Origin: a virus
DNA length: 38,248 nucleotides
Reading direction: 5' to 3' (one strand)
IMG/VR virus record: IMGVR_UViG_3300027752_000043
Coordinates: 1-38,248 of that record
In this document: positions 6,773 through 38,248 of the stretch, piece by piece
Layout: every line of letters begins with the position of its first letter
How positions within the stretch are numbered: the stretch's first letter is position 1
Notes under the pieces: model-generated
The model's database searches: none
What the model saw: the letters and a program-made list of their open reading frames with translations, nothing else
Told to the model about the DNA's origin: nothing
Made by a program: the position numbers and the translations under genes

Positions 6773-6780
6773 TATTTATC
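6773..6780 (-). promoter_or_regulatory. T4-type late promoter motif overlapping the stop codon of the giant gene
   Basis: Minus strand reads GATAAATACAGTATAGGAACGG. The TAA stop codon of the 4542-residue gene (6778-6776) is part of the GATAAATA motif. The next gene starts 24 nt downstream at 6749. The 13-base string ATAAATACAGTAT recurs exactly before gp25. Confidence 0.6.
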
Positions 6781-9700
6781 GTGGTAGCGATATTGTTTTG
6801 TCTGTTATAAACTTAGCTATCTGATTTTCGCTATCTGCTAGTGATTTTCCAAAATCATTCCATACTTTGCCTGTTCTTCGAGTAACTTCAATAAGTGTAC
6901 CATCTGCAGGGGCGTCAATATAGTCAGCTAGTGTTAACACTGTTACTGTGCCACTTTCAGTTACTATATTTTCAATAGTGTACTGCGGAGCAACTATTAC
7001 ATCTGCTTCAGGTGAATCTTGATCAACTGTTCTATCAAACGTTACAATAGTGTCTTTGCGCAATCTAGTACCTGCTAAAAATACATCAATCTCATTTACA
7101 CTAGTAGGAACAAAGTCTAATAAAAACTCTGTTGAACTAGCATCGCCAACAAATGTAGTTTTAGTAGTTTCGTCTTTGTATGGAATATTTTCTTCAATTC
7201 CCTGACCTTGTACTATTGTAGCTGTTGGATACTGTTCTTTAATGCCAGTTCCTAGTGTACCTCGTCTAATCTGTCTAAGTAGATTTCCATCAACTGTAAA
7301 ATATTCAATACGCTCTTTGTCAATCCAAACAACACCAGGAACACCTAGTGCTTTGTTAGGCTCTTGGATCCCTGTGCTATCAACTAGTTGAATATTAGAA
7401 TCATAATAGTTTAAAGGTTGCTGTAAAGTATATTGATTGTCTTTATTTAAACGCTTAAAATGGAATCGGTTTAACATATCTTTAAAAATACGATATCCAA
7501 ACTTAGGATTACTTGTTAATGCTGTAAACTGCAATACTTCTACCTTATCGTTTGATGTAACTTTGTCATAAAGTTGTACACCAGTTCTAGAAGCGTCCAA
7601 CTTATAATCTTGCTGAGGTGTTAGCATTATACCGTTTTTAAATACCCAGACATAGTTTGCACTTAATGCTGGTTTTTCAAGTTTAATAAATCCTCTACTC
7701 AACAAGTTTTTATCAATATAAAACTGTGTTCCAAGTGGTGCTTGATTTGTGTTCCAAACAATGTCATATGTGTTTCTTTCAAACCCGTTGATATCATGAT
7801 TACTGAATACATAAATGTCAATAGTTTCCCATTCGTTTGGTGCTTCTGACAACGATAATACATTAGTTTCAACAAGTGCAATATTGCCTATGATTGCCTG
7901 TGTGCTATCAACTTCCCAACTTGCAACAACTTCCGGAGTGTCGTCAATACTTTTAAGCTGGAATAACTCTCTAATGTAACCTTGCAGTTCTAGTGTTAAT
8001 GTGGTGCCACTTCTACTAAATGATTCTACACACGCAATAACAGTAGTACTATCATCTGATAGTTTAAACGCAACATCTGCACCAATAGCAGGATCATTAA
8101 TACCATCGCCGTTTGTTATTTCTACAGTTGTGTTTATAAAGTAATATTCTGCATCACGAATGATAAAGATTTCTAACTCGTCGCCTGCTTTACCAACATT
8201 GTTGTCTAGCAACTCTACTCTGCCATTAATAGTATCATAAAAATAATCAATACGATCAACTATAGAACCGTTAATATAACAAATAACATCAGTTTGTCTT
8301 ACTGCTGTTGTATCTTCAAACTGCCAACGATCAATATCGTATGCTCTGTTACTGTCTATTGTATGTTTTTTTCTATAACCGGCATTTAAGAATCTGCCGT
8401 CTCCACGTTTTACTAAAATATTTTGTGCAAGAGGCTTGTCAATAACAGGCAGTGCAACATCATTAGTAAATCTATGAACTTTATTTACACCATCGGTTAC
8501 AAACGTACTATCAATAACCATTTGACTATATTGATTTATACTGCCGTTATATATGCTATAACCAATAACTATTCCGCTTGTAAGTTTAGTTGGAAACACA
8601 AGTTGTGCAAAACCAGTATCTGATTCTGTAAGTCCATAATCAATGTCTTCAGTTTTTAAAACACCATTAACAGTTACAAACGCACTTAGCGCAGATGTAA
8701 ATCTGATAGAAAGTTCGTATATAAACTTGTCGCCAGTGGCAATAATATTATCACTGTCTATCAAATCAACACCATTTGTGCCAATAGTTAATATAGACAG
8801 ATTCTGATTAGCAGCTAATGCAGTACTATCATTTAAACTTATAAACTTTCTTTCGTAGTCGATGTTTATGTCGGCATGATCAATAATCTCCCCAGCTACT
8901 TTTACAACAAGCGTTGTATCTGATTGCGGATATGCATCAAACTCCCATTCAACAGTTGTACCATCTGTAATATAGTTTCTTACAGTAATAATACCCTGGC
9001 CGTCTGCACTTCTATTATACACTTGAATGTCAACTGTGTCAAGTACTTGGCCTGGAACCTGTTCTTCTGGTCCACCGCTAGTGGTTTCTGTAACAAAGCC
9101 GTCGCCGTCGACAACTATGTCGCCTGACTCAATACCTTTAGCAGTTGTGTATTCAAAGTTTCCACCTTGTAAACTCACATCGTATGCAGTTGATTCAGGA
9201 GTAAAACTACCATCGCTGGTTGATTTTCTTACTATCAATACATCGTCAACATTTACATTAATCACATTGTTGTCCAATGTAATAGTGTTTGTAATATTGT
9301 CGCCTGCTGGTGATACCATTTTAGCACTTGGATTAGCAACAACACTAACTCCATCATATGCCGGATCGTCTATACGAACATTGTTTAAATAAACATTGTA
9401 TGTTACACCTGATTCTAGTACACTTGATAATGTAATAATCTCTTGACCATCTGATAGTATAAAGATCTCATCTTCATAGTTGGTGTCAAACGTGTCAAAA
9501 TCAATACCAAACCCTTTTGCATCAAACCCGGCATCTTCGCCAAATCCGATACTGTCCATTTGAACTCCGCCATAATCAACTCCAGCCATTAACTGACTTA
9601 GTTCTTTGCCTGGCATATTTGTAGTAGGCTTATAGAAGAAGTTGATTCTGTCTTCGGCAGTTAGTAGACTTGTTGACTTTTTATAGTTTATAACAACTGC

Positions 9701-12700
9701 ACTGTTATTTACAGGTGCGTTTGTAAATGTTATTTTACCACGATATCTGTCAAAAGTTTTGGTTGTATCAAGAACATTTGTTGCTACAAAATCACTTATT
9801 AACTGAGGCTCACCTGCTATAGTAACTGAAATGTCAGCACTGTTTGTACTCAATGGCCATTTTAGACTAAACTCAGTTAGGCCGCCATTACCAACAAATG
9901 TTTCTGTTTCATCTAATGTTGTAAAGTAGTATGCGCCAGCAACTCTATCAAACTTCATTAACATGTGTGTTGATCTAATCACACTGTTTCCTATTTGAGC
10001 ATAAACTGTAGCTTCTACACCATCTTCTTCTAAACTACCATTAACTGTAACTGTAGGAGTAGTATAATATTTTGCACCCGCAGTATCAACTTCTATATAT
10101 TGAATAGTGGTGCCACCGATGTATGCTAGTCCTTCTAAGGTTGGGCCGCCACCGCCACTAACTGTTACATTTGCAGTTTCGGTATATCCGCTGCCGCCGT
10201 TGTAAACTACAAAGTTAGTGATTTCAAAACCAACATTGTCTAACCAATGTTTTTGTGGATATGTTTGTGTAATAGCATTTGTTCCAACAATACCATTATT
10301 AAGGAACTTAATAGTTTCGCTAATAATCTGACCGCGGTCTGCATCATACCGAGGAGGCAAATCAAAGTCAGATACGCTAGTTTGTGTTGGCTCTACTTTT
10401 CCGTATGAACTAATATATTCTCTTATTTTAGTACTATACGGTTTTACTTCTTCAATATAATCCTGATAGTTAGGAAGGTTATCGTTTTGATAAGTTACTT
10501 TTTGTTTAAGTTCGCCAACATTGTGCTTGGCTACTACAAAGCTAGATTTAAATATCCAATCTAAATCAACTTGCTCACTCATTGCATATCTAATACTTGC
10601 AAAGAACAGTTTGTTCCACTCTACTTCTAGCTGATCAACAAACAAGTTGTCTCTTAGTGCATATAGTATTATTCTTATTTCTTGTGTTGGCTCGCTATCA
10701 TAAAATGATGCATCATAGATTATATTATCAAACCCAGCTGTTTCATTTTTATATAGTTGACTACTAAATTCAATCGTACCATTCTGTCTACCTACAACTT
10801 TATAGTTAACAGTATAATCAACTTCTGCTTGATTGTCAATTTTTTCTAATAATAGCCATCCTCCAGACCCGATGTTTTCAATCTTAACAGTATTGCCAAG
10901 TTTGTCATTTAGTGCTTCGAGTGCATAACTGCCTTGTATTAAATAATCAACTGATGTAAGACTGCTGTAGCCAGTAGCATACCAATCTTTGTATGTCCAG
11001 TATTTTGTAACATCATACTCTTGAACATAGTTTCTAAACCATTCCTGTGTGCTTGCAATCCAATTGTAAACAGCCCAAATGCCGCCCACTTCTGAATCTG
11101 TGGTTACAAGCACACTAAATGGACGTACAATAATAGTAGTATCACTTAGATAGTTTTTGCCGCCTTCAACTATTTCAACTTCAATAACTTGTCCAAGATT
11201 ATTAATATATGTTTTTAGCTCGGCTCCAAATCCTTGTCCTTCTATTGTAACAGTTGGGCCGTTGCGTTTTCCTGAAACGTAGTTACTGTCAGCATAACCT
11301 CTACCTGTATCTGTAATAGTAACACTTGTAATAGTGCCATCTACAATAACAGGAGTAAGTTTTGCTTGAGATACCTTAGCAGTACCAACAAATCTTAGCA
11401 AACCTTCACTTGCAACTTGTGTGTCCCACTGGTTACTAAACTTACTAGGGATAGGATCAGAAGTAAGCAAAGGCGAAATATCAAAGTCATCAACAATAGT
11501 AGATTGAGACAATATACCATTTACTCTTTCAACGATTTGTTTGAGTGCTTCTGTTCTGTTAACAAATACAGACTGTCTTGGTTCATTTAATATACCAAAG
11601 CGTTGTGCAATACTAACATTTAAATCTGGTAATACATTATCGTGAGTATCATATCCAGCTAAACTATCAACCCATTTGTTAACAATGTCGTTGTTTGGCT
11701 TACTCGATGCTAACCCCTCAACTATTAATGCATACTCACTGTGAATATTCTTGTTTTCTGCATTGTCTTGAATAAAGTAATCAACATGTAAAATAGTATC
11801 TGTATCTTTTATAAGATTTTTAACATTGTGCAATGCAAACTTTTTATTGTCAAGCAATGCAACATATCTATAACCTTGTCCTGATGGATCTGCAATCAAC
11901 TGTGCAACATCAAAAGAACTAATACGTCTTCCGTATGTGTTTGGAATAGTATTCTTATTTTTAACCCAGAAGTAATATGTTGGTATAAATGTATTTGACA
12001 CTGTGTCGTATACTCTAGCTCTTACATATGAATCATCGCTGTATAAACTCAAGCCACTTATGCCAGTTGATAAGCCTTCTGTTGAATCTGCTAGGCTGTC
12101 CCATTCACTCGGTAATAAATCACTTTGCACCCATTCGTAAACATCAACACTAAATCCAGGAACAATTTGATTCCATGTGTTTGATTTGTATTGTATATTT
12201 CCTTGATAAGGATTGTACCACTTTACAGCATTAAGATCCCACCAAAGTTTTCCAACTTGATGACTACCCCAAAGATCTGCTGTTCCTGTATCGGTACTGC
12301 CGATGTTGTAAACTGCCGGATCGTAATACAACTTATAAGTAAGTTCTTGTTCTGCAGGGCCTGCAATACGTCCACTAATAGGATCGATATAATCAAGATA
12401 TGTGATTAAATCATTTGTTGTTTTATCATATAACCAAACACCTTTGATTTTATCAACGTCTACGTGCTGCTCGCCTTGGCTGTTGATTGACCATGCATTT
12501 TTGTTTAGGTCTGATCTATGATCCTGTATTAATCCAAATACATCGCCATTGGGCTGTGCAGGTGCAACTATGTACAAGTGGTTTTTATTTAAAATACCAT
12601 ACGGATCTTTTGCATCAGAAATATCAACTTGTGAATATAGTTTTTCAGCATACACCAGACCGTCATTTATTGTTTCATAAATGTAAACTTGTCCATTATC

Positions 12701-15700
12701 TTTAACACTGTCAGTTAGTACAGTTGCATTATTATCAAGATATGTTGTATCGTTATCAAGTGTAACATATGCAAATGTATCGCCGTTTCTACTTGTTACT
12801 GCAAGTTTATCTACATCAAAACTTACGTTACTACCAAAGCGTTCGTTTTGTTCACCGTTTGGTGCATAAAGTGTTTGATCTAATGCAAACTCACCGTTTG
12901 TTGATTTGTACACATATACTGCGCCGTTGTACGTTCCGTTGGTGCTGGATATCTGTGCGCCGATTGCTATTTTTGTGCCAGCACTGTTTAAACTTATTGA
13001 TGTTCCAAAGTACTCTTGATCAGTAGGCGAGTCAATATTTTGATCAAATACAAATCTTCCATTTGATTTTCTGTAGATTGCAATTCTATATTCACCGTCG
13101 TCTTGAATACCACCAAGTGCTAATACTTCAGCATTGTTACTAATGTCATAACTAGATCCGACTTCTGCTGCATTTCCAAAAGAACTACTATCTTCGTTTA
13201 AGATATCAGTGACTTCATTTAAGTTAGCAGGAATAAATCCTGTATAATCAATATATGTAGAAAGTACATCCCACTGACTAGCATTAAACACATCTCCTGC
13301 AAACACAGTTGTATTTGCTTCACGTAGTTCGCCATCGTAGAACACAATTTCGCCTGCAATATATTTAGAAATAGTCTGCCACTCACCTTTGTAGTTTGTA
13401 TCTTTTGAATATGCATATGATTTTACATCATTTATGCCTTTGTTGTTAACAAAATAAACTCTGCCGTTGTCTGCTAAACTTCTAATAACAAGATTGTGAT
13501 CCCAATCTCCTGGAGATACTACTTTAATAGCAGTACCAAACTTTTCGTTTCCTGCAGGAACAGAACTTAAAATAATATCAACTAGTTGATACGTGCTGTC
13601 TAATAATCTTTCGTAGATATAAACAACACCCTGATCGGATTGACCAAAGCTATCAGCAGTTGCATCTGTTGTTAATATCTCTACCAGAGCCCAGTCTTGA
13701 CTCGACAAGTTAATAGTACTACTGTCTGGAGCTATAGTTTGCTGTGCTTCCCATAGTATACCTCGTTGACTTACAATGTCGCCTGCGTTGTAACTTGACG
13801 CAGGATTTAATACACCTTTGTAGTTTGTTTTGACGTTTGTAGCAGTTGGAGCACCTACATATAGATACTGTCCATTATCTGTTACTGCAACGCTTGTACC
13901 AAAATCGCCAGCATCATGATGTGTTGCTAGTGGCTCTAATGTTTGTTTTAATGTAAAGTCAATAGCTTCGCTACTTCTAGTATAGACGTAAACTTTGCCA
14001 TTGTCGATGTCTGGCGTACCTACTGCCATTATTTTGTTACTACCACTAAATGCTACATCATACCCAAAGTAGTTATTTCCAGCTGTCGGTGCAGGAACAG
14101 ATTGTTTAAAACTACGAATAATATTATTGTCATATACGCCAAAGTTTCCATCAGCATCAATAGAATCAATCCAGAATCTATCGTTGATATCTAAGTTGTA
14201 AACTTTAGTAATATTATTAATGTCTGTTGGTAACGAAACTCGTCTCGAAGACATTTGAGTTACTATTCCTAGTGTGCTATCAGACAAGTCAATAAACTCT
14301 TCTGTGATTGGGTTATCAAGTTGTATTTCAATATCTGTATAGCCAGTGTTTTGAACAATCCAAAAGCCATTAACATCATTGTTAATATTATTAAATCCAA
14401 CAATGTCGCCGTCTACAAAACTAATAGGTTTATTAAACGTTGCTTTAAAACCTAGATCGGTTTTTTCAATAGACTGAATACGTATTGGTGCAACAACGTG
14501 TTTGTATACATTCCAAGTTTGTCCAGCTTTTGGAACCCAAATATAACTTCCAATATCAACACTGTCAACATCTAATACTAAAACATCATTTAATGTTGTT
14601 GTTAAAAAGTTAACTTGATCCAATGTAACATACCCAGCAGTTTTAGAATATTCGTTGGTGCTCGATGTTAACGGCAATGATGTATGTGTATAGCCTGCAG
14701 GTGAAAGATATACATCTTTTCTTGGATACTGATATACTAAGTCTGTACGAGTAGAATTTACTGTTTCTACAAACTCAATAAGCTGTGGTTCAATTCTAAA
14801 CTTACTTTCGTCTAATGCAAACTCAACTTCGTCAAAACTGTTTGTTGCACCATAACGACCAACACGTACTGCCCATTCTTCATACAATTCTACACTGTCT
14901 TGATTTGCTGAACCTAGTTTATCAAATAGTTTTGTAATAGCATTTGATGTACCTTTGTCTTGAATAAATCCTTGATAAAACTTGTACTGACTTACATCAT
15001 CCTGAATAATGTTACCAAGGTATTCGCGCTTTTGATAGCCAATTAAATGCTGTGCAAGTCTTTGCTGCTCACTGTCAAAGTTATCAGTATCTAAGTCATA
15101 AAAATCTGCAAACTGATTTGCTCTATAATCCCAGTTTGGTAATAACTGACTTTTTGGTTTACTGTTTAGTCTGTTCCAGTTTCCGTAAACAAAATCTTGT
15201 GTTCCACTGTGTGCAAATCTTGCTGAATAATAAAACTCTTTAAACTTTACAAGTTCTGCTGTTTTATAATCTTTATAACTTTCCCAAGTAGTAACTTTGG
15301 CATCATCGTAAATAAAGCCTGGAATATTTAAACTACCATTCCAGTCATCAGTTCTATAACCTACTACATTTAGGCGCTCTTGTCTATATCCAGTTTCAGG
15401 AACATAGATTGTATCATTAAATACTGTTGTGTTGTCAATAAGTACAACATGTTCTTTTTGTATCAGCGGCAACTTAATAAGGTAAATGCCTTCTGATTCT
15501 GATGTAATATTAAACATATTAGTATTGTCTCTGTAAATACTCGAACGTGTTTTTGTAATTGCATTTCCGTTTTGATTAAGAACTGCTAAATCATACTGAT
15601 TGTCATAAATGTTATCTACTACATAAAAATCTTTTTCAAATACAACACGATTGGCAGCAGGACTTAATGTCAGTGTACTACTATTTGCCCAGTTTTGTGT

Positions 15701-18700
15701 TGTCCAGAATAAAAACTCTTTTGCAGCAAGCTGCCAGTTTTCAACTGCTTCTGTTGTTTTATTAAAATAATCAAACTTAAATCCTAAAGATTTTAAGTGT
15801 GTTTGGTATCCTAGCAAAAAGTCAACTACTTGTTGCAAATCTAATAATATTGTTCCGTAGTCAAGTTTTGCAGTTTGTGTTTGAAATGCTTTTTTAAAGT
15901 TTGCGCCTTTGCCGCCTGTGATAGGTAGCTCAGGTAATGCTGAATACAAACTAGAATCAAAGGAAGATCCTGTATTATGATTAACATTCACTCTGTAATA
16001 TCTATTGTTGTATCTAACAGTTTTTCCAGCAACAAGAAACTTGTCTTCTGCCCACGAAATAAAGCTCTCACTAATGCCGCCGACATTTATAAACGGATCA
16101 CTAGCATTTTCTATTGCAGGGTAATATTTAAAGTATGGTTGATCTTTATCATAACCCGAGATCTTATAACCTTTGCTAGTTCTTTCAACAATAACACCAC
16201 TGTATATAACAATATCTTGCGGACTCGATGTTCTTAAAATAATATTATAGTTTTCATCAGGTACAAAAATATTGCCTTTGTTTAAAGGAGTTTTACTGTC
16301 TAATACTAGCTTTAGTTTATTCTTTTCTGCAAATCCAGCAAGTTTAAATCCTAACTTGTTTGTTAGTCTTGTTAAGTTATCTACATATGTAGTATAAGGA
16401 TATTGGGAGTTTGAGTTAATATATTCACTGATGTAGTTTACAAATCCTCCACTGATGTTAGTTCCTACTTTAGGAAATACTAAGTTTGCAGTATCAATTC
16501 TTTTTCCAGTTTGACTATAAACTAAGTTTCCTGCAACGTCTCTTTGAATACGGCTTCTGTCAAATCCAACACCCATTGTGTATGCTGGTTTTGTTAACAA
16601 AGCTGCAATCATTAAACTAAACGGATATCCACTGCTTCTTCTCCATGCAGTTTCTGTTGGTGCTTCGTCTCCAAACTTAAACAGTTGTTGGCTTTGTACA
16701 GAAAAGCTAAAGTTTGTAACATAACCACTTTCCAACGGAGACAACAGTTGGCCATTTTCAGTTACAGGAATATGATTTAACAAGTTGTGTCTTACATATT
16801 TTTTGTTTCTTAACACTGTTTTACCTGGTTGTCTAATAACGCCGTTTTGTAAATCTGTCCATAGTATTAAGTTATCGCGGGTGTATGGTGCCGGTCCGTA
16901 AACTGTTTCCCACCAAGTTGGCTTTGTACCATACCCGAGCATTTCCCAAGGATGTGTGTGAGGACGATCAGTGTCAAACGCATGTCTATAAATGCCTCTC
17001 CAAAAACCCGGTACAGCTTCATTGCGATCATTTGTACTTCCATTATAGTTGTAAGTAAAAGGAGATCCTTGTACTACAAAATCATTTTTAGTATAATCGG
17101 ATACTTTTGCAATACTAGTCCAGTCAATAAAATCTTTGATTAAGATGTTGTCGATGTCAGCTGATGGTATTTTAGTATTTCTATCAACTCCGCCTACAAT
17201 ATCATTGATGTCAAAAATATCAGGATTGTATACTACTTTTATGTTGTTATAAATGCGCTTTTCTAGTTCTAAGATCAAGTCATCTCTATAATCATTGTAT
17301 GCTAATGTAATACTGCCGTCATGACCTCTTATAACATATACCGGAGTTGCATACGAAGTGTCGTAAAACTTTTCAGGAGCATATGCAGGGAACATTCCTA
17401 TTTTAGTAGGAGTAGGTGCTACAAAACTACCTTCAGTATTATCATATTCGTGTATAACTAAAACATCGCCATTGGTTAGTGTTGCACTTATATCAACAAA
17501 TCCTGTGCCAGTAAATGTATAATCTACATTGTGTATTAGTTGTACATCGTTTAAATATACATAAAGTGCTTTATTACTAATAGTAGTTGGACTAAACATA
17601 TTACTCAATGCATACACTGTTAATCTACTATCTAAGATTTCGTATTCAATCTTTTTACTTCCGCCTGTGCCTACCATGTCAGTACTGTAAAACGACATCG
17701 TTGAAGTTTTTGCACTGTTTAGTTCATTAAAGATAAAATCTACATAATCTTTTACTGTTCCTTGAAATGCACTTTCGGTAGCAACTTGAATAAACTGTCT
17801 TTTAAACTTAGTGTATTCATTTAACGCATATCTAATAGACTTGACTACATTTGCATTTTTGTTTACCAAATGATATAATGGTAAGTTAACTGGGCCACTA
17901 TGCTGTACAAACTTTCTTCCATATTGTGCAAGTGAACCTAAATCTCTAAGGTTGCCAACACCTGGTTGCGCACCAGTAAATGCTTCTACTTCTGTAACAA
18001 GTCCTTCGACATGGTCGTTTACTTCGCCTAGTGTAAACTCTATAATGTTATTGTTAGATGGGTTTCTTTCAAAGTTGTGTGGAATCTCATAATAACCGTT
18101 GTTATTTTTATCAGCTATACTTTTAGTCTTAATAACAACAATGTCATTAAATCCTATATCTGTAGGAAGTACAACTTTACGAATATTGTTTTCATCTACA
18201 AATGTATAATCAACTTTGTATTCATTGTTAACATAAACTCGAACTATTAAATCTGTTAGACTTGCACTGTGATTATAAACATCAATAGGAAACTTGTTTA
18301 AAAATTCCTGTCCTGTAAATCTTCTTACTACATATTGCTGGCTTTTTACATTAGCACGTTGCCATGCGTTAGAATAAGAAATAACATTTTGATTAAATGA
18401 TTGCAAATAGAAAATATCACTGCTTACAGATTTAAAAACACCTGAAACTTTATACTGGTATGTACTATTAAGAAGTCCAAAATCAAAAACTATATCACCG
18501 ATATTTACAAAGTTTTTATATGTAAGAGGAAATCCTAGTTCAGCATCATTTGCGCCTTCGCCAACTCTATAACTAAACAGTCTGTTTCCTGCAAAATCAG
18601 TTGAGTCATAAACAGTAGCATCGCCTAAGCTATTTCCACTGCTGTCAAACAAGTCAAACTTTGGTGCTTGATTTAATCCTACTTTGTCTTGGGCTAGTTT

Positions 18701-20404
18701 CCAATTGGTACCGTTGTACCAATACATTTTACCAGCATTTTTTGTTCCGTCTTTAACTAGAACTGTTTCGTTTAGTATTGGATCGGTGTCTGTAGTTTCA
18801 ACTAGACTTATTTGTGTAGTATTAGTATGAGTAATAAACTTAACTTCATAGATCTTACCATTTACAAAACTATCCGGATCTGCTGTAAATAAAATACGCA
18901 TCCCATCAACTAAATCTATTCCATCAACATTATAACCAGAAGTACCTTCGATAGTACTGAATACATCTTTAGTAAATGTGTCAACTAGATTTACATTTAG
19001 TTTTGCTGTATTGCCATGATTCCATAAACGCAAGTTTGCTTCAAACTCAATAATAGGACGTTTGGCCCTTGCTGCTTGATCTAATACAACTGGTTGGTTA
19101 TTAATTTCTGCACTTTTTTCAATAACTGATTTATGTATCCAACGGTTATATCTTGCCCATGCGTTTCTACTAGAATCACGTCTGTCTATACAGATATAAT
19201 CTTTTGATCCTGCATAACTTCTTGCATCGCTCCATGGAACACGATCAAACCCATTTGCATCAAACGGCACTTGGGTATCTTGTGTAAAGATAGCAGGGAC
19301 TTCTAAGTTGCCAACCGGGACTAAACTAATAGCGTTGCCTACTCCTTCAACATAGTACAATCCTTGTTCGTAACTTGCAGGTGTTACATTACCTTGGAAG
19401 TAAACTTTCATTCCATTAGAAAGGGCCCAACCATCAATTGTTGTATATGTTTTCTTTCCAATAATTTCTTCGCTTACGTCAATAGCACTACTTTCTTCAA
19501 TATCAAAAATGTTAAATGCGCCACTGTTGTTAATGTCAAGTTGACTAACATAATATAAGTTGTCAGGTGCATCTGCAGGAACAGTAAATTCAAGTATGCC
19601 GTTTTCAATGAAGCCTTCTTCTAAATAATCAGAACTATTAACAAGAGAATCATCTAACTGATCGTGTGTTAATGTAACACCTTCTTGATACAGTGTACTA
19701 ACTAAGGTACTATCTTTTGAATACATAACTTGCTTTTGTCTAGCAGTTGCAATACTAATAGGATGGCCAGGAACGTTAACTTCGAACTTATATGTCTGAC
19801 CTCTATATAACTTGATGCTTTTATTTCTTGTTATACCATCTGGAGAAATAATATATGCAGTATTGTTATCATCTACTACTGTTTCAATAGTAAATGTACT
19901 AGTTACTGCCAACCCTTGTCCTCGTACTGGAACGTCTTGTGGGCCATTTGGTAGCCAATAGTACTCTCTAAAGTTAGTAAACTTGTCAAAGTTAATATGT
20001 GGGTTCCATGCATAAAACTCTTGCTCAAAAAGTTTATTATGATTAGTAGTATTGCCGCCAAAGGCTGATATCTGTCCTAAGATATCTAAGTAGTCGGCAT
20101 CAAACTCTACATTTTCAATATCGTCTTGTACAATAGCATATGGCTCAAGTTGATAATCTTCTCTAAGTGCATTAATATCACTAATATAGTTGTCATCAAT
20201 AGTTACTGCTTTTGCTTCTCTGCGTCCTACAAAGCCATTTATTTTTTCAACAACGCCCGGATTAGTTAACTGATCAACTGTGCTTCCAAGGAACTTTTTA
20301 TTTGCATTAGTTCTAAAATATCTCGGCAGTAATGAAGCTGATGTTCTCTTTACGTTAGAGTTTCCTGGAACAGGATATTCGTTTTGATCATCGTTGTATG
20401 CCAT
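6776..20404 (-). CDS. giant baseplate/tail structural protein in the gp7 position, with internal beta-propeller
   Basis: 4542 residues in one uninterrupted frame. Position directly after gp6 is that of T4 gp7 (1032 residues), but it is more than four times longer and I can claim position, not homology. The N-terminus has LLPRYFRTNANKKFLGSTVD (about residues 25-44), a motif I associate with large structural proteins of marine T4-like phages. Domains visible in order: beta-rich segments with repeated VYVNNEYKVDYTF / VYLNDVQLIHNVDYTF patterns; modules with W, Y and V/Y spacing like small carbohydrate-binding domains (about 1443-1493, 1703-1746, 2191-2241, 2335-2383); a seven-blade FG-GAP-like propeller (about 2110-2640); two GSGY/GRGY-type beta modules (about 3018-3098 and 3391-3461); further repeats of a TEFSLKWP / TEFLLDFVP type near the C-terminus; and IEYFTVDGNLLRQIRRGTLG (about 4355-4375). 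The start ATG is 2 nt from the gp6 stop. Confidence 0.8.
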   Translation of the reverse strand: MAYNDDQNEYPVPGNSNVKRTSASLLPRYFRTNANKKFLGSTVDQLTNPGVVEKINGFVGRREAKAVTIDDNYISDINALREDYQLEPYAIVQDDIENVEFDADYLDILGQISAFGGNTTNHNKLFEQEFYAWNPHINFDKFTNFREYYWLPNGPQDVPVRGQGLAVTSTFTIETVVDDNNTAYIISPDGITRNKSIKLYRGQTYKFEVNVPGHPISIATARQKQVMYSKDSTLVSTLYQEGVTLTHDQLDDSLVNSSDYLEEGFIENGILEFTVPADAPDNLYYVSQLDINNSGAFNIFDIEESSAIDVSEEIIGKKTYTTIDGWALSNGMKVYFQGNVTPASYEQGLYYVEGVGNAISLVPVGNLEVPAIFTQDTQVPFDANGFDRVPWSDARSYAGSKDYICIDRRDSSRNAWARYNRWIHKSVIEKSAEINNQPVVLDQAARAKRPIIEFEANLRLWNHGNTAKLNVNLVDTFTKDVFSTIEGTSGYNVDGIDLVDGMRILFTADPDSFVNGKIYEVKFITHTNTTQISLVETTDTDPILNETVLVKDGTKNAGKMYWYNGTNWKLAQDKVGLNQAPKFDLFDSSGNSLGDATVYDSTDFAGNRLFSYRVGEGANDAELGFPLTYKNFVNIGDIVFDFGLLNSTYQYKVSGVFKSVSSDIFYLQSFNQNVISYSNAWQRANVKSQQYVVRRFTGQEFLNKFPIDVYNHSASLTDLIVRVYVNNEYKVDYTFVDENNIRKVVLPTDIGFNDIVVIKTKSIADKNNNGYYEIPHNFERNPSNNNIIEFTLGEVNDHVEGLVTEVEAFTGAQPGVGNLRDLGSLAQYGRKFVQHSGPVNLPLYHLVNKNANVVKSIRYALNEYTKFKRQFIQVATESAFQGTVKDYVDFIFNELNSAKTSTMSFYSTDMVGTGGSKKIEYEILDSRLTVYALSNMFSPTTISNKALYVYLNDVQLIHNVDYTFTGTGFVDISATLTNGDVLVIHEYDNTEGSFVAPTPTKIGMFPAYAPEKFYDTSYATPVYVIRGHDGSITLAYNDYRDDLILELEKRIYNNIKVVYNPDIFDINDIVGGVDRNTKIPSADIDNILIKDFIDWTSIAKVSDYTKNDFVVQGSPFTYNYNGSTNDRNEAVPGFWRGIYRHAFDTDRPHTHPWEMLGYGTKPTWWETVYGPAPYTRDNLILWTDLQNGVIRQPGKTVLRNKKYVRHNLLNHIPVTENGQLLSPLESGYVTNFSFSVQSQQLFKFGDEAPTETAWRRSSGYPFSLMIAALLTKPAYTMGVGFDRSRIQRDVAGNLVYSQTGKRIDTANLVFPKVGTNISGGFVNYISEYINSNSQYPYTTYVDNLTRLTNKLGFKLAGFAEKNKLKLVLDSKTPLNKGNIFVPDENYNIILRTSSPQDIVIYSGVIVERTSKGYKISGYDKDQPYFKYYPAIENASDPFINVGGISESFISWAEDKFLVAGKTVRYNNRYYRVNVNHNTGSSFDSSLYSALPELPITGGKGANFKKAFQTQTAKLDYGTILLDLQQVVDFLLGYQTHLKSLGFKFDYFNKTTEAVENWQLAAKEFLFWTTQNWANSSTLTLSPAANRVVFEKDFYVVDNIYDNQYDLAVLNQNGNAITKTRSSIYRDNTNMFNITSESEGIYLIKLPLIQKEHVVLIDNTTVFNDTIYVPETGYRQERLNVVGYRTDDWNGSLNIPGFIYDDAKVTTWESYKDYKTAELVKFKEFYYSARFAHSGTQDFVYGNWNRLNSKPKSQLLPNWDYRANQFADFYDLDTDNFDSEQQRLAQHLIGYQKREYLGNIIQDDVSQYKFYQGFIQDKGTSNAITKLFDKLGSANQDSVELYEEWAVRVGRYGATNSFDEVEFALDESKFRIEPQLIEFVETVNSTRTDLVYQYPRKDVYLSPAGYTHTSLPLTSSTNEYSKTAGYVTLDQVNFLTTTLNDVLVLDVDSVDIGSYIWVPKAGQTWNVYKHVVAPIRIQSIEKTDLGFKATFNKPISFVDGDIVGFNNINNDVNGFWIVQNTGYTDIEIQLDNPITEEFIDLSDSTLGIVTQMSSRRVSLPTDINNITKVYNLDINDRFWIDSIDADGNFGVYDNNIIRSFKQSVPAPTAGNNYFGYDVAFSGSNKIMAVGTPDIDNGKVYVYTRSSEAIDFTLKQTLEPLATHHDAGDFGTSVAVTDNGQYLYVGAPTATNVKTNYKGVLNPASSYNAGDIVSQRGILWEAQQTIAPDSSTINLSSQDWALVEILTTDATADSFGQSDQGVVYIYERLLDSTYQLVDIILSSVPAGNEKFGTAIKVVSPGDWDHNLVIRSLADNGRVYFVNNKGINDVKSYAYSKDTNYKGEWQTISKYIAGEIVFYDGELREANTTVFAGDVFNASQWDVLSTYIDYTGFIPANLNEVTDILNEDSSSFGNAAEVGSSYDISNNAEVLALGGIQDDGEYRIAIYRKSNGRFVFDQNIDSPTDQEYFGTSISLNSAGTKIAIGAQISSTNGTYNGAVYVYKSTNGEFALDQTLYAPNGEQNERFGSNVSFDVDKLAVTSRNGDTFAYVTLDNDTTYLDNNATVLTDSVKDNGQVYIYETINDGLVYAEKLYSQVDISDAKDPYGILNKNHLYIVAPAQPNGDVFGLIQDHRSDLNKNAWSINSQGEQHVDVDKIKGVWLYDKTTNDLITYLDYIDPISGRIAGPAEQELTYKLYYDPAVYNIGSTDTGTADLWGSHQVGKLWWDLNAVKWYNPYQGNIQYKSNTWNQIVPGFSVDVYEWVQSDLLPSEWDSLADSTEGLSTGISGLSLYSDDSYVRARVYDTVSNTFIPTYYFWVKNKNTIPNTYGRRISSFDVAQLIADPSGQGYRYVALLDNKKFALHNVKNLIKDTDTILHVDYFIQDNAENKNIHSEYALIVEGLASSKPNNDIVNKWVDSLAGYDTHDNVLPDLNVSIAQRFGILNEPRQSVFVNRTEALKQIVERVNGILSQSTIVDDFDISPLLTSDPIPSKFSNQWDTQVASEGLLRFVGTAKVSQAKLTPVIVDGTITSVTITDTGRGYADSNYVSGKRNGPTVTIEGQGFGAELKTYINNLGQVIEVEIVEGGKNYLSDTTIIVRPFSVLVTTDSEVGGIWAVYNWIASTQEWFRNYVQEYDVTKYWTYKDWYATGYSSLTSVDYLIQGSYALEALNDKLGNTVKIENIGSGGWLLLEKIDNQAEVDYTVNYKVVGRQNGTIEFSSQLYKNETAGFDNIIYDASFYDSEPTQEIRIILYALRDNLFVDQLEVEWNKLFFASIRYAMSEQVDLDWIFKSSFVVAKHNVGELKQKVTYQNDNLPNYQDYIEEVKPYSTKIREYISSYGKVEPTQTSVSDFDLPPRYDADRGQIISETIKFLNNGIVGTNAITQTYPQKHWLDNVGFEITNFVVYNGGSGYTETANVTVSGGGGPTLEGLAYIGGTTIQYIEVDTAGAKYYTTPTVTVNGSLEEDGVEATVYAQIGNSVIRSTHMLMKFDRVAGAYYFTTLDETETFVGNGGLTEFSLKWPLSTNSADISVTIAGEPQLISDFVATNVLDTTKTFDRYRGKITFTNAPVNNSAVVINYKKSTSLLTAEDRINFFYKPTTNMPGKELSQLMAGVDYGGVQMDSIGFGEDAGFDAKGFGIDFDTFDTNYEDEIFILSDGQEIITLSSVLESGVTYNVYLNNVRIDDPAYDGVSVVANPSAKMVSPAGDNITNTITLDNNVINVNVDDVLIVRKSTSDGSFTPESTAYDVSLQGGNFEYTTAKGIESGDIVVDGDGFVTETTSGGPEEQVPGQVLDTVDIQVYNRSADGQGIITVRNYITDGTTVEWEFDAYPQSDTTLVVKVAGEIIDHADINIDYERKFISLNDSTALAANQNLSILTIGTNGVDLIDSDNIIATGDKFIYELSIRFTSALSAFVTVNGVLKTEDIDYGLTESDTGFAQLVFPTKLTSGIVIGYSIYNGSINQYSQMVIDSTFVTDGVNKVHRFTNDVALPVIDKPLAQNILVKRGDGRFLNAGYRKKHTIDSNRAYDIDRWQFEDTTAVRQTDVICYINGSIVDRIDYFYDTINGRVELLDNNVGKAGDELEIFIIRDAEYYFINTTVEITNGDGINDPAIGADVAFKLSDDSTTVIACVESFSRSGTTLTLELQGYIRELFQLKSIDDTPEVVASWEVDSTQAIIGNIALVETNVLSLSEAPNEWETIDIYVFSNHDINGFERNTYDIVWNTNQAPLGTQFYIDKNLLSRGFIKLEKPALSANYVWVFKNGIMLTPQQDYKLDASRTGVQLYDKVTSNDKVEVLQFTALTSNPKFGYRIFKDMLNRFHFKRLNKDNQYTLQQPLNYYDSNIQLVDSTGIQEPNKALGVPGVVWIDKERIEYFTVDGNLLRQIRRGTLGTGIKEQYPTATIVQGQGIEENIPYKDETTKTTFVGDASSTEFLLDFVPTSVNEIDVFLAGTRLRKDTIVTFDRTVDQDSPEADVIVAPQYTIENIVTESGTVTVLTLADYIDAPADGTLIEVTRRTGKVWNDFGKSLADSENQIAKFITDKTISLPR

Positions 20405-34620: not shown

Positions 34621-36273
34621 ATGAAAATTACAATAGTTGGTGGTGGGTTAGCTGGAGCATTGTCTAGTTGTTTCTTAGCAAAAGAGTTTCCGGATGCAGA
34701 AGTTGAAATGATTCATAGTCCTAATGTTCCAACACTGGGCGTCGGCGAAAGTATTACACCGCATCTTCCAGGTATGTTAAGAGGACTCGGAGTTGATGAA
34801 AAACGTTTTATGAGAGAAACAGGTGCAGTATTCAAGTACGGCAACAACATTGAAGATTGGACCGACACTGCTGACGGTCCTGACGTGCTTCGTATGTTTC
34901 ATTGGAGTAATGGTATTGATAAAGACTTTACTTGGAAAAACGTTACTAGTACCTTTCCGCCTGAAACTAAGACAACTGATGTGTGGCTAGATGTTTATCG
35001 AAACGGCAGTGCGCCAGACTTAGACGTATATCATCATAACGCAGAAGGTTATCAATATCTCAAAGATAAAAAAATGCCGTTTGATGATGACGGAAACTAT
35101 TTAATACCTGCTACTGCTACATATGCTTATCACATCGACGCTGAAAAATGTGCGCCATGGATCATTGAAAACGTTTGTAAGCCGTATGGTGTTGTTGAAA
35201 CTATTGCACATGTCAAAAAAGTTAACACAGGCAAAGAAGGTATTAAAAGTGTAATACTGGATGACGGTACAGAAGTTACTAGTGACATATGGTTAGATTG
35301 TACAGGACTTAGTAGATTTTTAATTAGTCATCTTACAACAGAGTTTGTACAAACAAAAGCAAATGTTATGAACAGTGCTTGGGTATGCCCAATTAGATAC
35401 GAAGACAAGAATTCAGAATTTGTAAACTATACAAGAAGTATTCGGCAAGATATGGGCTGGCAGTTTAAAATTTGTTTAGACGCTCGTATTGGCACTGGAC
35501 TAATTTTTAGTGATGAATATTTTTCTGACGACGAAGCATTAGAATGGTTGAAAAATGAAATAGGTGATAGAAATATTCGGCCGCCAAGATTGTTAAAATG
35601 GAAGCCAGGAAGATTAAAAACTCCAAATGTAGGCAATACATTTGCTGTTGGAATGGCAGCATCATTTACAGATCCATTAGAAGCAAATGCTGTTGTTAGT
35701 ATTATTGCTAGTATCAAACGTATTGCTTGGATGCATCAGCGCAACTTAGATGAAGATTATTACAATAGAAAAATGAAGCATTATTTTCAAGACATAGCAG
35801 ATTACACCGCAGTTCATTACACACTTTCTAATAGAGGTAACAATCATTTTTGGAAGGACATGAGACGCATAGGTAAAGAACTTAATCACAAACAACTTGT
35901 AAGACAAAAATATTACGACATTTCAAACTGTATGGATAGTGTAATAGGTTATGTTTCAGCATTTCCAGATATAAACTGGATTGATATTGCTAACAATTGG
36001 ATGGATAAAGACGACTTAGAAGATTGGCCAAAAAAATCAACTCCAGAACAACAAGCAGCATACATTCGTAGAGTACGTAACGAAAAGTTATTACACGAAA
36101 TACAATCAACTAATAATAAAAAATCAATTGACGAATTCCTCAAGATGTATAATAATGTAGAAGAATATGATAAAGGGTTACATAAGTGGCCAACAGATTA
36201 CTTTAGTAAAATGTTTGGAAGCGAATATATTAACAGGCATAAAACTAATTCAATAAAGAGGTCGACCTTCTAG
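34621..36273 (+). CDS. flavin-dependent halogenase, tryptophan 7-halogenase (PrnA)-like, variant
   Basis: 550 residues, similar to PrnA (538). The FAD-binding start is IVGGGLAGALSS (about 5-16), and the family motif LGVGESITPHLP follows at 39-50. The catalytic lysine of PrnA (K79, in GAFKAA) lines up without gaps with K72 (AVFKYG; the flanking M and W also match). The catalytic glutamate of PrnA E346 (PLESTG) corresponds to E354 in DPLEANA, but the next serine is alanine here. The WxWxIP signature that marks halogenases is altered to GWQFKIC (about 278-284). WLDCTGLSRFLI matches the family's conserved DCSGMRG segment. The enzyme class uses FADH2, oxygen and halide; substrate here is unknown. 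AAGGAA lies 8 nt before ATG 34621. No flavin reductase gene is in view, so host reductase is presumably used. Confidence 0.88.
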   Translation: MKITIVGGGLAGALSSCFLAKEFPDAEVEMIHSPNVPTLGVGESITPHLPGMLRGLGVDEKRFMRETGAVFKYGNNIEDWTDTADGPDVLRMFHWSNGIDKDFTWKNVTSTFPPETKTTDVWLDVYRNGSAPDLDVYHHNAEGYQYLKDKKMPFDDDGNYLIPATATYAYHIDAEKCAPWIIENVCKPYGVVETIAHVKKVNTGKEGIKSVILDDGTEVTSDIWLDCTGLSRFLISHLTTEFVQTKANVMNSAWVCPIRYEDKNSEFVNYTRSIRQDMGWQFKICLDARIGTGLIFSDEYFSDDEALEWLKNEIGDRNIRPPRLLKWKPGRLKTPNVGNTFAVGMAASFTDPLEANAVVSIIASIKRIAWMHQRNLDEDYYNRKMKHYFQDIADYTAVHYTLSNRGNNHFWKDMRRIGKELNHKQLVRQKYYDISNCMDSVIGYVSAFPDINWIDIANNWMDKDDLEDWPKKSTPEQQAAYIRRVRNEKLLHEIQSTNNKKSIDEFLKMYNNVEEYDKGLHKWPTDYFSKMFGSEYINRHKTNSIKRSTF

Positions 36274-36293: not shown

Positions 36294-36728
36294 ATGAGTA
36301 GTTGGACATATCAAGGCAAGACAGTAGACGAACTTCCAGAAGGCTGCGAAGCATTTGTTTACTTGATTACAAACCTAACCAACGATATGAAATACATAGG
36401 CAAAAAACTAGCAAAGTTTAAAGTAACTAAACAACCGCTAAAAGGCAAAAAAAATAAAAGGCGTAGCACTAAAGAAAGTGATTGGAAAACCTATTGGGGT
36501 TCTAGTGACAGATTAAATGCTGCGGTTTTAGATTTAGGCGAAGACAAATTTACTAGAGAAATATTACACATTTGTCCCAGTAGAGGCGTTGCAAGTTATT
36601 TAGAGGCTAGAGAACAGTTCGAACGCAGAGTTTTAGAAACTGATGATTACTACAATGGTATTATCAATGTGCGAGTAGGCGGTTCACAAATTCTCAAAGA
36701 GGCACTCAGAGCAAACAAGGCTATATAG
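36294..36728 (+). CDS. GIY-YIG endonuclease (Seg-like)
   Basis: 144 residues. The GIY-YIG signature is present in a degenerate form: VYLITN (22-27) and KYIGKK (33-38), separated by a short turn. A Lys/Arg-rich insertion (about 48-60, PLKGKKNKRRSTK) follows, then WKTYWGSSDRLNAAVLDLG, FTREILHIC, the YLEAREQFE segment holding the expected catalytic glutamate (E104) and YYNGIINVRVGG with the conserved asparagine (N121). This arrangement matches small Seg-type nucleases of T4-like phages; no separate DNA-binding domain is visible. It starts 20 nt after the halogenase stop with no clear Shine-Dalgarno. Just downstream begins the structured non-coding region. It may be a homing or repair nuclease; which one is not decided by the sequence. 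Confidence 0.82.
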   Translation: MSSWTYQGKTVDELPEGCEAFVYLITNLTNDMKYIGKKLAKFKVTKQPLKGKKNKRRSTKESDWKTYWGSSDRLNAAVLDLGEDKFTREILHICPSRGVASYLEAREQFERRVLETDDYYNGIINVRVGGSQILKEALRANKAI

Positions 36729-37031
36729 GACTCTGTAAAAATCCAAGAATCAGCCGAGGTAATGCTCGTAGCCGGTGGTGTGGATCGTCCAAAGGTAAGA
36801 ACTAACTTAAGGTTTAAATGATGTGGGCTCTGAGAAAAAGCAACCCGCAGGCAAGTGATTTCGCTTAATAGGGATTAACTGCCATCCGTTGATAAGACGA
36901 AGCTAGAGTAAGGGGTACAGGTCAACCGCCTCTGTTGTGAAAGCAAATCTCTTTTATTAAGTGTGGTGAGAGCAACTCGAATAATGTTGTCTACCGCTTC
37001 GCCCTTGAGCGGGCGAAGTATGACTACACAA
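36729..37031 (+). ncRNA. candidate structured non-coding RNA, family unknown
   Basis: No convincing gene is open on either strand. By my rough count this stretch is about 45% GC, peaking near 50%, in a genome that is clearly AT-rich. GAC-(T)-CTGTA at 36729-36737 can pair with TACAGGTC at 36916-36923 (8 pairs, one bulge), closing a ~195-nt domain. Inside are hairpins CGAG/CTCG (36755-36768), TGGA/TCCA (36781-36791), GTGGG/CCCGC (36823-36827 with 36844-36848) and AAGTG/CGCTT (36853-36866). A second part carries the repeated string GTGARAGCAA at 36937-36946 and 36966-36975 and ends in an 8-bp GC hairpin, CTTCGCCC/GGGCGAAG (36997-37018), with outer TTGT/ACAA (36987-36990 with 37028-37031). Strand is assumed from the flanking genes. 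I could not match it to tRNA, tmRNA, RNase P or group I introns. Confidence 0.45.
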
Positions 37032-37166
37032 TCTGAATAATATTAAATGCATATGCATAGCATATGCCTTGTTAGTATCATATTAAGTAATCTTAGTTCA
37101 TCTAAAGACTTTAGTACGTGTTGAGCGACAGCGATAACACAGTTGAACGTAGTTCAACTAATAAGT
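37032..37166. repeat. cluster of short perfect inverted repeats
   Basis: This AT-rich gap holds four inverted repeats in a row: GCATATGC-ATA-GCATATGC (37049-37067, 8-bp stem, 3-nt loop), CTAAAG-A-CTTTAG (37102-37114), GTGTT/AACAC (37118-37140) and AGTTGAAC-GTA-GTTCAACT (37141-37159, 8-bp stem, 3-nt loop). None is followed by a T-run, so they are not ordinary rho-independent terminators. They end 7 bases before the late promoter at 37167. Possible roles are RNA processing or stability elements, protein binding sites or an origin/recombination site; none is proven. Confidence 0.6.
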
Positions 37167-37174
37167 TATAAATA
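37167..37174 (+). promoter_or_regulatory. perfect T4-type late promoter TATAAATA
   Basis: TATAAATA followed by CATTATAATG, 24 nt upstream of the ATG at 37199. It is the only exact match to the T4 late-promoter consensus in the motifs listed here and the only one on the plus strand. It implies that the downstream gene is a late gene although it is in the rightward block. Confidence 0.7.
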
Positions 37175-37198
37175 CATTATAATGTTTGGAATATCTCT

Positions 37199-38248
37199 AT
37201 GAAGTTAAATGAAATCACACTTAAAGACACACATCTGATGTTTGAAGAACAATACGATGGTAGAAACTTGATGAGGTTTTCTCCTGGTGTTGCCCAAGTA
37301 GGAAATGAATGGCATGTGTTTTTACCTGATGAAAAAGCATATGTAGTTGCAGAGAACAAACGTGCAGCAACTCAAATACAAAAAGAAGTCACTAACTTAG
37401 CTAAAAATAACAAAACTCCTGCTCAAATAACTTCTGCAATAAAACAGAACGTAAATAACGGAACGTTAAAGGGTGCATTTAACAAGCAATGGACTGGTAT
37501 CTCTCGTGCTATAAAGAGTTTACAGTTTGGAGATATAGCCAATCGTCCGTGGACTTATAAAAAATTAGCAACGTTAGCAACTACTAATGTATTTAAAACA
37601 ATAGGTGGCTTAGGAAGACTTGTAGGCCCAGCAAACTTTGCTATTATCGGAATGTCATATGGTTGTGCAGTAGCCATTGACGATATAGAAAAAGAAATTT
37701 CAAGTCCTACACCACCACAAAATGTAGACGAACTACGCAGACTTCAGGATATTTTAGTAGCACAAATGATTACATATATGACTGCTGGCTTAATTAAAGT
37801 GTTTGCTTCGGGTGGAATAAAAGTTATTAAATACATGCTAAGGGCTATTAAAACATTAGTTAGGGGAACACAAGCAGTTGGTGTTGTCTCAGGTGTAGGT
37901 ACAATACCAAGTTTGCTCAGTATAATAGTAACTGAATCGGCTTGGATAGTCATACCAATGATTGTTAGTATGCCTGCTGTTCAACGAGCACTTGCAGAAT
38001 TTATATCAGGAACTATGTTTGGCGATTTTGCAGCATGGGCAGGTCTTGAAGGAAGAGCTGCCGCCGAGACAGCGTCAGAACTATTAGATGGCAGATTTGG
38101 AACTGACGCAATGGTACGGGCAATGTCAGGCTTTGATCCTAAAGAAGCTACAGAAGGACCAACAGGTGAATACTACGGTGACAGTGAGTGGGCTAAAAAT
38201 GTTTTCAGCGGATTATTATTTCCTCCTAGTCAAGCAAGTATACTAGTT
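37199..38248 (+). CDS. late protein with hydrophobic segments, possible internal head or injected protein (3' end cut)
   Basis: An open frame of 350 codons from ATG 37199 runs to the window end, so the C-terminus is missing. It begins MKLNEITLKDTHLMFEEQYD, reminiscent of the short capsid-targeting N-termini of T4 internal head proteins (for example MKTYQEFIAE), and contains LNE and FEE, near the L/I-x-E type cleaved by the T4 prohead protease. Two regions are long and hydrophobic: about residues 134-160 (GGLGRLVGPANFAIIGMSYG) and 225-262 (VGVVSGVGTIPSLLSIIVTE, then AWIVIPMIVSMPAV). A Lys/Gln-rich helical part lies at about 50-110. Upstream is a perfect late promoter; Shine-Dalgarno is weak (GGAATATCTCT). 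I do not recognise the family. Internal, membrane-active virion protein is inference only. Confidence 0.65.
   Translation, partial: MKLNEITLKDTHLMFEEQYDGRNLMRFSPGVAQVGNEWHVFLPDEKAYVVAENKRAATQIQKEVTNLAKNNKTPAQITSAIKQNVNNGTLKGAFNKQWTGISRAIKSLQFGDIANRPWTYKKLATLATTNVFKTIGGLGRLVGPANFAIIGMSYGCAVAIDDIEKEISSPTPPQNVDELRRLQDILVAQMITYMTAGLIKVFASGGIKVIKYMLRAIKTLVRGTQAVGVVSGVGTIPSLLSIIVTESAWIVIPMIVSMPAVQRALAEFISGTMFGDFAAWAGLEGRAAAETASELLDGRFGTDAMVRAMSGFDPKEATEGPTGEYYGDSEWAKNVFSGLLFPPSQASILV

What the first reader, a model, noticed from the sequence alone, without database searches (positions are those of the whole stretch)
36729..37031. Unassigned structured RNA candidate downstream of a GIY-YIG endonuclease
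A gene-free, relatively GC-rich stretch in an otherwise tightly packed AT-rich phage genome, with a long-range closing stem (36729-36737 with 36916-36923), several nested hairpins, an internal repeated string (GTGARAGCAA at 36937 and 36966; a looser third copy near 36831-36843) and a strong GC hairpin at 36997-37018. Phages rarely keep ~300 nt without coding, so retained structure suggests function. It matches no RNA class I know; it could be a new phage ncRNA, a regulatory leader, or an RNA connected to the adjacent endonuclease.
Basis: partly seen in the sequence, partly recalled or inferred. Interest (0 to 1): 0.75.

Follow-up and report, generated by a model that had tools for sequence, protein, structure and literature searches.

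The report
New twin-loop phage noncoding RNA family
Between two genes of a marine virus of bacteria lies a large folded RNA of a previously undescribed family, present in hundreds of related viruses, which displays the same short sequence in two neighbouring positions; that sequence is identical within a virus but different between viruses, as if it were a replaceable recognition tag.

Summary
The gene-free stretch is real and is a structured RNA. Relatives lie downstream of the same SegE-type GIY-YIG gene in hundreds of marine viral contigs. Sequence-only alignment of 67 non-redundant cores shows strong covariation in two hairpins and an H-type pseudoknot (88% of cells paired; slid controls 39-52%), and a second pseudoknot and a 5' closing stem also covary. 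No Rfam 15 family matches. The RNA runs from about 36728 to 37160, beyond the given end.

An unexpected feature is a twin element: CUC-X-G, a GC hairpin, then UCU-X-A. X (6-8 nt) is the same in both copies within a phage but differs between phages (window GAAUAAU; others ACAUGAU, UGGUAAU, GCCACAU). Neither a complement of X in the RNA nor a third covarying site in about 600 kb of seven contigs was found.

The RNA also occurs without a neighbouring GIY-YIG, in freshwater phages and probably in cultured jumbo phage PA5oct, where one of three paralogues is annotated as an RNA-Seq-based ncRNA.

Most likely it is an independent trans-acting phage RNA that presents two copies of one recognition tag, with the GIY-YIG a linked mobility gene. 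Function is untested.

The parts
36728..37159 (+). whole noncoding RNA gene (ends inferred)
   Evidence: conserved block from the GIY-YIG stop codon to the 3' hairpins in relatives; no ORF
36294..36728 (+). SegE-type GIY-YIG endonuclease gene, 144 aa, linked to the RNA
   Evidence: PF19835 E 1.2e-32 over residues 4-124; about 100-230 nt upstream of the hairpin-A core in nearly all marine loci
36728..36731 (+). P1 5' strand (GGAC); partner 36787-36790 (GUCC)
   Evidence: compensatory changes GAGC/GCUC, GGAC/GUCC in 13 relatives, 90.8% paired
36787..36790 (+). P1 3' strand
36823..36848 (+). hairpin A (stem 36823-36827/36844-36848) with near-invariant loop CUCUGAGAAAAAGCAA
   Evidence: alignment A1, 93.1% paired, covarying
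36850..36883 (+). hairpin B; stem sequence almost free to vary
   Evidence: 7 of 7 pairs show compensatory changes
36862..36870 (+). loop of hairpin B, pseudoknot PK2 with 36955-36963
   Evidence: 7-12 bp in the window's subgroup; own score 15.6 against permuted maximum 13.3 over all members; fixed 5-bp version in subgroup A2, 165/175 paired
36955..36963 (+). PK2 3' strand
36888..36892 (+). helix a 5' strand (GUUGA); partner 36922-36926 (UCAAC)
   Evidence: 98.8% paired with many compensatory changes
36922..36926 (+). helix a 3' strand
36911..36915 (+). helix b 5' strand (AGGGG), pseudoknotted with helix a; partner 36929-36933
   Evidence: 93.1% paired; one pair is G-U in 59 of 67 sequences, an RNA-level signature
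36929..36933 (+). helix b 3' strand (CCUCU)
36979..36985 (+). X1 = GAAUAAU, framework CUC-X-G
   Evidence: identical to X2 within each phage, different between phages
36997..37018 (+). GC hairpin between the X copies
   Evidence: conserved position with compensating sequences
37035..37041 (+). X2 = GAAUAAU, framework UCU-X-A
37118..37159 (+). 3' end hairpins (GUGUUGAGCGACAGCGAUAACAC and AGUUGAACGUAGUUCAACU), probable end or terminator region
   Evidence: similar pair of hairpins ends class A1 and class B loci; no U tract, so termination is inferred
37167..37174 (+). TATAAATA, T4-type late promoter motif of the next gene, just outside the RNA
   Evidence: only exact copy in the window, 5.25 expected by chance

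Best explanation
The stretch encodes a free-standing, trans-acting structured phage RNA of about 430 nt. Shown by comparative sequence: a 5' stem domain, hairpins A and B, an H-type pseudoknot (a/b), a loop-B pseudoknot, and a 3' domain with two copies of one 6-8-nt element (X) either side of a GC hairpin. Inferred: the body is a scaffold that presents the two X elements, and X recognises, by base pairing or as a protein-binding site, a partner that differs between phages, for example a host RNA or DNA or a phage regulator. The need to keep both copies matched to that partner would explain their concerted change. Also inferred: the adjacent GIY-YIG gene is a linked mobility gene that keeps and moves the RNA at this genomic slot, not an obligate partner of the RNA.
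For: Covariation well above shuffled and slid controls. G-U is the commonest pair at one position of helix b, which points to RNA. X is identical in both copies in 66 of 69 members with 17 distinct X; in a flank-defined subset 18 of 18 are identical against 6.1 by shuffling, maximum 12. Close relatives change both copies together: L115 GAAUAAU to L170 GAAUGAU, L131 GCCACAU to L204 GCCACAG, class B ACAUGAA to ACGUGAA, ACAUAAU and GCAUAAA. The RNA persists without GIY-YIG in L111 (whole 50-kb contig), L163, L189 and L196 and in the PA5oct slot, and with GIY-YIG on the opposite strand in L131, L199 and L204. Downstream genes differ between phages, which speaks against a cis leader. Cultured relative PA5oct has an RNA-Seq-based ncRNA feature at one paralogue.
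Against: No partner of X was found: no complement in the RNA above control, no enrichment in neighbouring DNA, no third covarying site in seven contigs of about 600 kb (these are partial genomes). Transcription in the window's own phage is not shown. The PA5oct link is weak for two of three copies (R1 E 1.3e-4 for the 13-kb copy; the other two do not score significantly on the right strand), and the RNA-Seq feature covers one of those two. Whether X sits in a true hairpin loop is not uniform across members. The very tight GIY-YIG linkage in marine phages leaves room for a functional partnership.
Confidence: 0.5

Rival explanations
1. RNA and GIY-YIG form one machine: the RNA gives sequence specificity to a small nuclease whose Pfam match covers nearly the whole protein, leaving little room for a DNA-binding domain, in an arrangement like TnpB with its 3' guide RNA; X is the guide.
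For: GIY-YIG lies directly upstream on the same strand in 111 of 120 class-B loci, and in every one with room upstream, and in nearly all marine class-A loci. The pair is inverted as a unit relative to flanking genes in one group. The protein has 144 aa with Pfam match 4-124. X varies freely, as a guide would.
Against: The RNA occurs without GIY-YIG in freshwater phages and in the PA5oct slot and with the nuclease on the opposite strand (L131, L199, L204). Related GIY-YIG genes lack the RNA (L026, L030, L059, phage Melnitz). X is short and duplicated, and no target was found.
Confidence: 0.15
2. A DNA-level element: the twin X are identical cores of recombination, packaging or replication sites (like the 7-bp overlap of tyrosine-recombinase sites), and the hairpins are DNA hairpins.
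For: Twin X flanked by fixed bases (CTC/G and TCT/A) resembles paired sites that need core identity; the region lies at a variable gene slot.
Against: G-U pairs are common and even dominant at one helix position; two pseudoknots are conserved; a relative in PA5oct carries an RNA-Seq feature; no recombinase was recognised among the neighbours examined.
Confidence: 0.1
3. A ribozyme or a derivative of a self-splicing intron or self-cleaving element whose processing sites are the two X elements, left with its homing endonuclease.
For: Homing-type nuclease next to a compact pseudoknotted RNA with near-invariant loops; twin sites resemble a donor and acceptor pair.
Against: No match to the intron or ribozyme families of Rfam even at E 5-10; it lies between complete genes; no intramolecular guide complementary to X.
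Confidence: 0.1
4. A cis-regulatory 3' UTR or leader for the GIY-YIG gene or the downstream gene.
For: It starts at the GIY-YIG stop codon and ends before a late promoter motif.
Against: The downstream gene differs between phages and is sometimes on the opposite strand; the upstream nuclease is absent in some; the structure is far more elaborate than usual leaders.
Confidence: 0.08

Closest known systems
PA5oct putative lncRNA ncRNA004 (NC_071039.1 246116-246734, annotation note 'based on RNA-Seq data')
   Same: Shares its 5' domain (about 83% over 122-126 nt) with a PA5oct noncoding stretch that sits in the same slot (sigma factor, SbcD, SbcC ... baseplate hub, portal) as the window RNA. By eye it has the AAAGGAUG.GCUCUG hairpin, the UUCCG-[a]...[a']-CCGCCUC pseudoknot and a repeated CAUAAG either side of a GC hairpin.
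   Different: Longer (about 620 nt), at another genome position, three paralogues in one genome, no GIY-YIG neighbour; its own score against R1 is not significant (E 0.37).
GOLLD and ROOL large ornate RNAs (often in phages and prophages)
   Same: Large, elaborate noncoding RNAs of phage genomes with unproven function (own knowledge; PMC12286853, PMC9241854).
   Different: No Rfam match; smaller; not next to tRNAs; has twin X elements and a GIY-YIG neighbour.
TnpB/IscB omega RNAs (HEARO)
   Same: Structured RNA beside a small nuclease gene of mobile-element type; a variable recognition segment (own knowledge).
   Different: Nuclease is GIY-YIG and dispensable; X is short and duplicated inside the RNA; no Rfam match.
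IS110 bridge RNA
   Same: Structured RNA with two variable recognition elements (own knowledge).
   Different: There the two loops recognise different DNAs and are paired with a recombinase; here the two elements are identical and no recombinase was found.
phi29 pRNA and ColE1 RNAI/RNAII kissing loops
   Same: Short loop sequences that vary between phages or plasmids while staying matched (own knowledge).
   Different: Those loops are complementary to each other; here they are identical, and no complementary partner was found.

Membership tests
Structured noncoding RNA conserved by base pairing | compensatory changes above shuffled and slid controls on a sequence-only alignment | tested here: met
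   88.4% of cells paired against 69.0% shuffled and 39-52% slid; covariation 0.532 against 0.192
Structured noncoding RNA conserved by base pairing | no conserved reading frame | tested here: met
   no ORF of 40 aa or more in 36729-37176; hairpins of variable length in relatives; codon-bias statistics were not computed
Structured noncoding RNA conserved by base pairing | transcript detected | tested here: inconclusive
   not testable for this phage; an RNA-Seq-based ncRNA feature covers one PA5oct paralogue
Any Rfam 15 family (incl. GOLLD, ROOL, OLE, HEARO, group I/II introns, RNase P, riboswitches) | covariance-model match at gathering score | tested here: not met
   window none at gathering; only an unrelated sub-threshold hit up to E 10; ten further loci none relevant up to E 5; PA5oct slot none at gathering level
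tmRNA / tRNA | ARAGORN detection | tested here: not met
   0 genes in the window
Group I intron | interrupts a gene, leaving exons on both sides | tested here: not met
   lies between complete genes, after a stop codon
RNA-guided nuclease system (TnpB/IscB-like) | RNA always accompanied by the nuclease | tested here: not met
   RNA without detectable GIY-YIG in L110, L111, L163, L189, L196, L156 and the PA5oct slot (only a marginal HMM hit in L110)
RNA-guided nuclease system (TnpB/IscB-like) | nuclease binds the RNA and uses a segment as guide | not testable with these tools
   needs biochemistry; no target of X found
phi29-type pRNA / kissing-loop pair | two loops complementary to each other | tested here: not met
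   the two X are identical; no complement in the RNA above control

The most novel reading that the evidence does not exclude
The RNA is a reprogrammable recognition RNA: its twin identical 6-8-nt elements are guide-like tags that direct a phage effector, in marine phages possibly the small GIY-YIG nuclease, to a partner that changes from phage to phage.
Probability: 0.12. Interest if true: 0.95.

Novelty: categorically new. Interest (0 to 1): 0.8.

Why it matters
Concerted change of two short identical elements inside a conserved scaffold is unusual for a natural RNA and makes a clear prediction of a phage-specific partner. Because probable relatives sit in PA5oct, deletion, tag swapping and pull-down are feasible in laboratory strains. 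The label 'categorically new' refers to the RNA family; in the loosest sense it joins the large structured phage RNAs of unknown function.

Tried and rejected
Rfam at gathering and permissive thresholds: nothing relevant. Blastn of three family members against annotated phages: no homologue; a class-B query likewise gave only a chance-level hit. Folding energy of the quoted region: not significant. Intramolecular complement of X: no better than swapped controls. X or its complement enriched near the RNA: 0.2156 against 0.2173 per kb. Third covarying X site in seven contigs with seven X: only the two RNA copies align. Second R1 hit in the L111 contig (E 0.003): no sign of the family on reading. 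tRNA anticodon-loop, stop-codon and palindrome readings of X failed because members such as GCCACAU, AACGAAA and UGGUAAU do not fit. R1 score on the minus strand of the PA5oct slot (E 0.002): treated as chance. The PA5oct transcriptome paper (doi 10.1111/1462-2920.14979) is not held.

Full report
Context. The window is a 38.2-kb virus record. Its T4-type late sigma factor is closest, among annotated phages, to jumbo phages, with Pseudomonas PA5oct-like phages at 47% and Atu_ph07, Phosso and Munch further off. The candidate lies after a 144-aa SegE-type GIY-YIG gene and before a gene at 37199 that is preceded by the only TATAAATA in the window. There is no ORF of 40 aa or more in 36729-37176.

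Is it more than chance? Folding energy alone does not decide. Homology does. Of 80 viral loci fetched with the GIY-YIG protein, about 35 besides the window match the intergenic stretch by relaxed blastn. A pattern from the most conserved loop, TGAGAAAAAGCAACC, hits the 120-record limit of the viral collection; most of these are members and a minority are chance matches. A sequence-only alignment of 67 non-redundant cores gives 88.4% paired cells, against 69.0% shuffled and 39-52% slid, and a covariation score of 0.532 against 0.192. Helix a of an H-type pseudoknot is 98.8% paired with many compensatory changes, and helix b 93.1%. One helix-b position is G-U in 59 of 67 sequences, which argues for RNA and against a DNA cruciform.

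Further helices. The loop of hairpin B forms a second pseudoknot. In the window's subgroup it has 7-12 bp (for example CUUAACUAGGG/UCUUAGUUAAG, CUAACCU/AGGUUAG). Over all 68 sequences the own-pair mean score is 15.6 against a permuted maximum of 13.3. In subgroup A2 a fixed 5-bp version is paired at 165 of 175 cells, shuffled maximum 142. The 5' closing stem covaries between GAGC/GCUC and GGAC/GUCC in 13 relatives.

The twin element. Across classes the 3' part reads CUC-X-G, GC hairpin, UCU-X-A. X is identical within a phage and differs between phages. It is found in 66 of 69 non-redundant members, with 17 distinct X. To avoid circularity, X was also defined by its flanks alone: 18 of 18 pairs are identical against a shuffled mean of 6.1 and maximum of 12. 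Close relatives show both copies changing together (L170 against L115; L204 against L131; class B ACAUGAA, ACGUGAA, ACAUAAU, GCAUAAA). One class-B locus (L353) has a one-base difference. The partner of X was sought and not found. In the last test, seven contigs with seven different X were compared site by site, and the only homologous positions that carry each contig's own X were the two RNA copies.

Classes. Besides class A (subgroups A1 with the window, and A2), other GIY-YIG loci carry class B, with a different central domain (GUCGACGUAGGUUGGGAAAGGUCAGAGCC) but the same twin-X 3' domain. This pattern also returns 120 records; 111 have GIY-YIG within 2 kb, and none with room upstream lacks it. 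L028/L064 score against the class-A model at E about 1e-4 to 3e-5 and L204 at 1.9e-4.

Relation to the nuclease. In marine phages the pair is tight and in one group is inverted as a unit relative to its flanks. However, the RNA is found without a detectable nuclease neighbour in L110, L111 (50-kb contig), L156, L163, L189 and L196, and with the nuclease on the opposite strand in L131, L199 and L204. That these nuclease-free loci come from freshwater was inferred from their divergence and cargo genes, not read from sample records. Conversely, GIY-YIG relatives occur without the RNA (L026, L030, L059, Melnitz). So the nuclease is best seen as a linked mobility gene, a view that is inferred.

Cultured relatives. 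PA5oct keeps the same gene order (sigma, SbcD, SbcC ... baseplate hub, structural, portal). A noncoding stretch of about 1 kb lies in the slot, where only tiny hypothetical ORFs are annotated. It has two paralogues in the genome, at 13 kb and 246 kb (84% and 83% identical over 122-130 nt). The class-A model finds the 13-kb copy (E 0.0037 in the genome scan, 1.3e-4 in the local scan), while the other two do not score significantly on the expected strand. The 246-kb copy lies in a GenBank ncRNA feature, 'putative lncRNA; ncRNA004; Annotation based on RNA-Seq data'. By eye all three show the UUCCG-[a]...[a']-CCGC element, and ncRNA004 repeats CAUAAG either side of a GC hairpin. This makes PA5oct a probable, not proven, cultured member. 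The paper behind that annotation could not be read (its reference is printed in PMC9241854).

Interpretation. Shown: a conserved structured RNA with two pseudoknots and concerted twin X, no Rfam family, and independence from any one neighbour gene. Inferred: a trans-acting RNA presenting two copies of a recognition tag. Not shown: transcription in this phage, the partner of X, and any role of the nuclease. As a kind it is nearest in spirit to large ornate phage RNAs such as GOLLD and ROOL, but it fails membership in every Rfam family tested.

Noticed in passing
window 37167-37174: TATAAATA, the T4 late promoter motif, occurs exactly once in the window although 5.25 are expected by chance; it lies directly before the gene at 37199.
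   Followed up: partly
window 34621-36273: Tryptophan halogenase gene (PF04820, E 4.8e-74) next to the GIY-YIG/RNA pair; the same gene sits there in several relatives, others carry different cargo genes in this slot.
   Followed up: partly
window 6776-20404 (minus strand): One ORF of 4542 aa, an unusually large phage protein, not analysed.
   Followed up: no
PA5oct NC_071039.1 12900-13307, 75800-76900, 246116-246734: Three paralogous noncoding stretches with a nearly invariant 5' domain of about 130 nt; one is annotated as an RNA-Seq-based lncRNA, the other two are unannotated or covered by tiny doubtful ORFs.
   Followed up: partly
class B loci such as L012, L016, L263-L380: A 29-nt string GTCGACGTAGGTTGGGAAAGGTCAGAGCC is exactly conserved in at least 120 viral contigs as part of a second central-domain class with the same twin-X 3' domain; also without an Rfam match.
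   Followed up: partly
L204 (contig of a Rickettsiales MAG, NZHE01000016.1): A divergent member with X = GCCACAG in both copies and GIY-YIG on the opposite strand, in a contig filed under a bacterial genome; probably a phage contig.
   Followed up: partly
downstream of class A and B RNAs, window 37118-37159: A recurrent 3' ending: a stem around GAGCGAUAGCGA followed by a perfect hairpin without U tract, possibly the terminator type of these phages.
   Followed up: no
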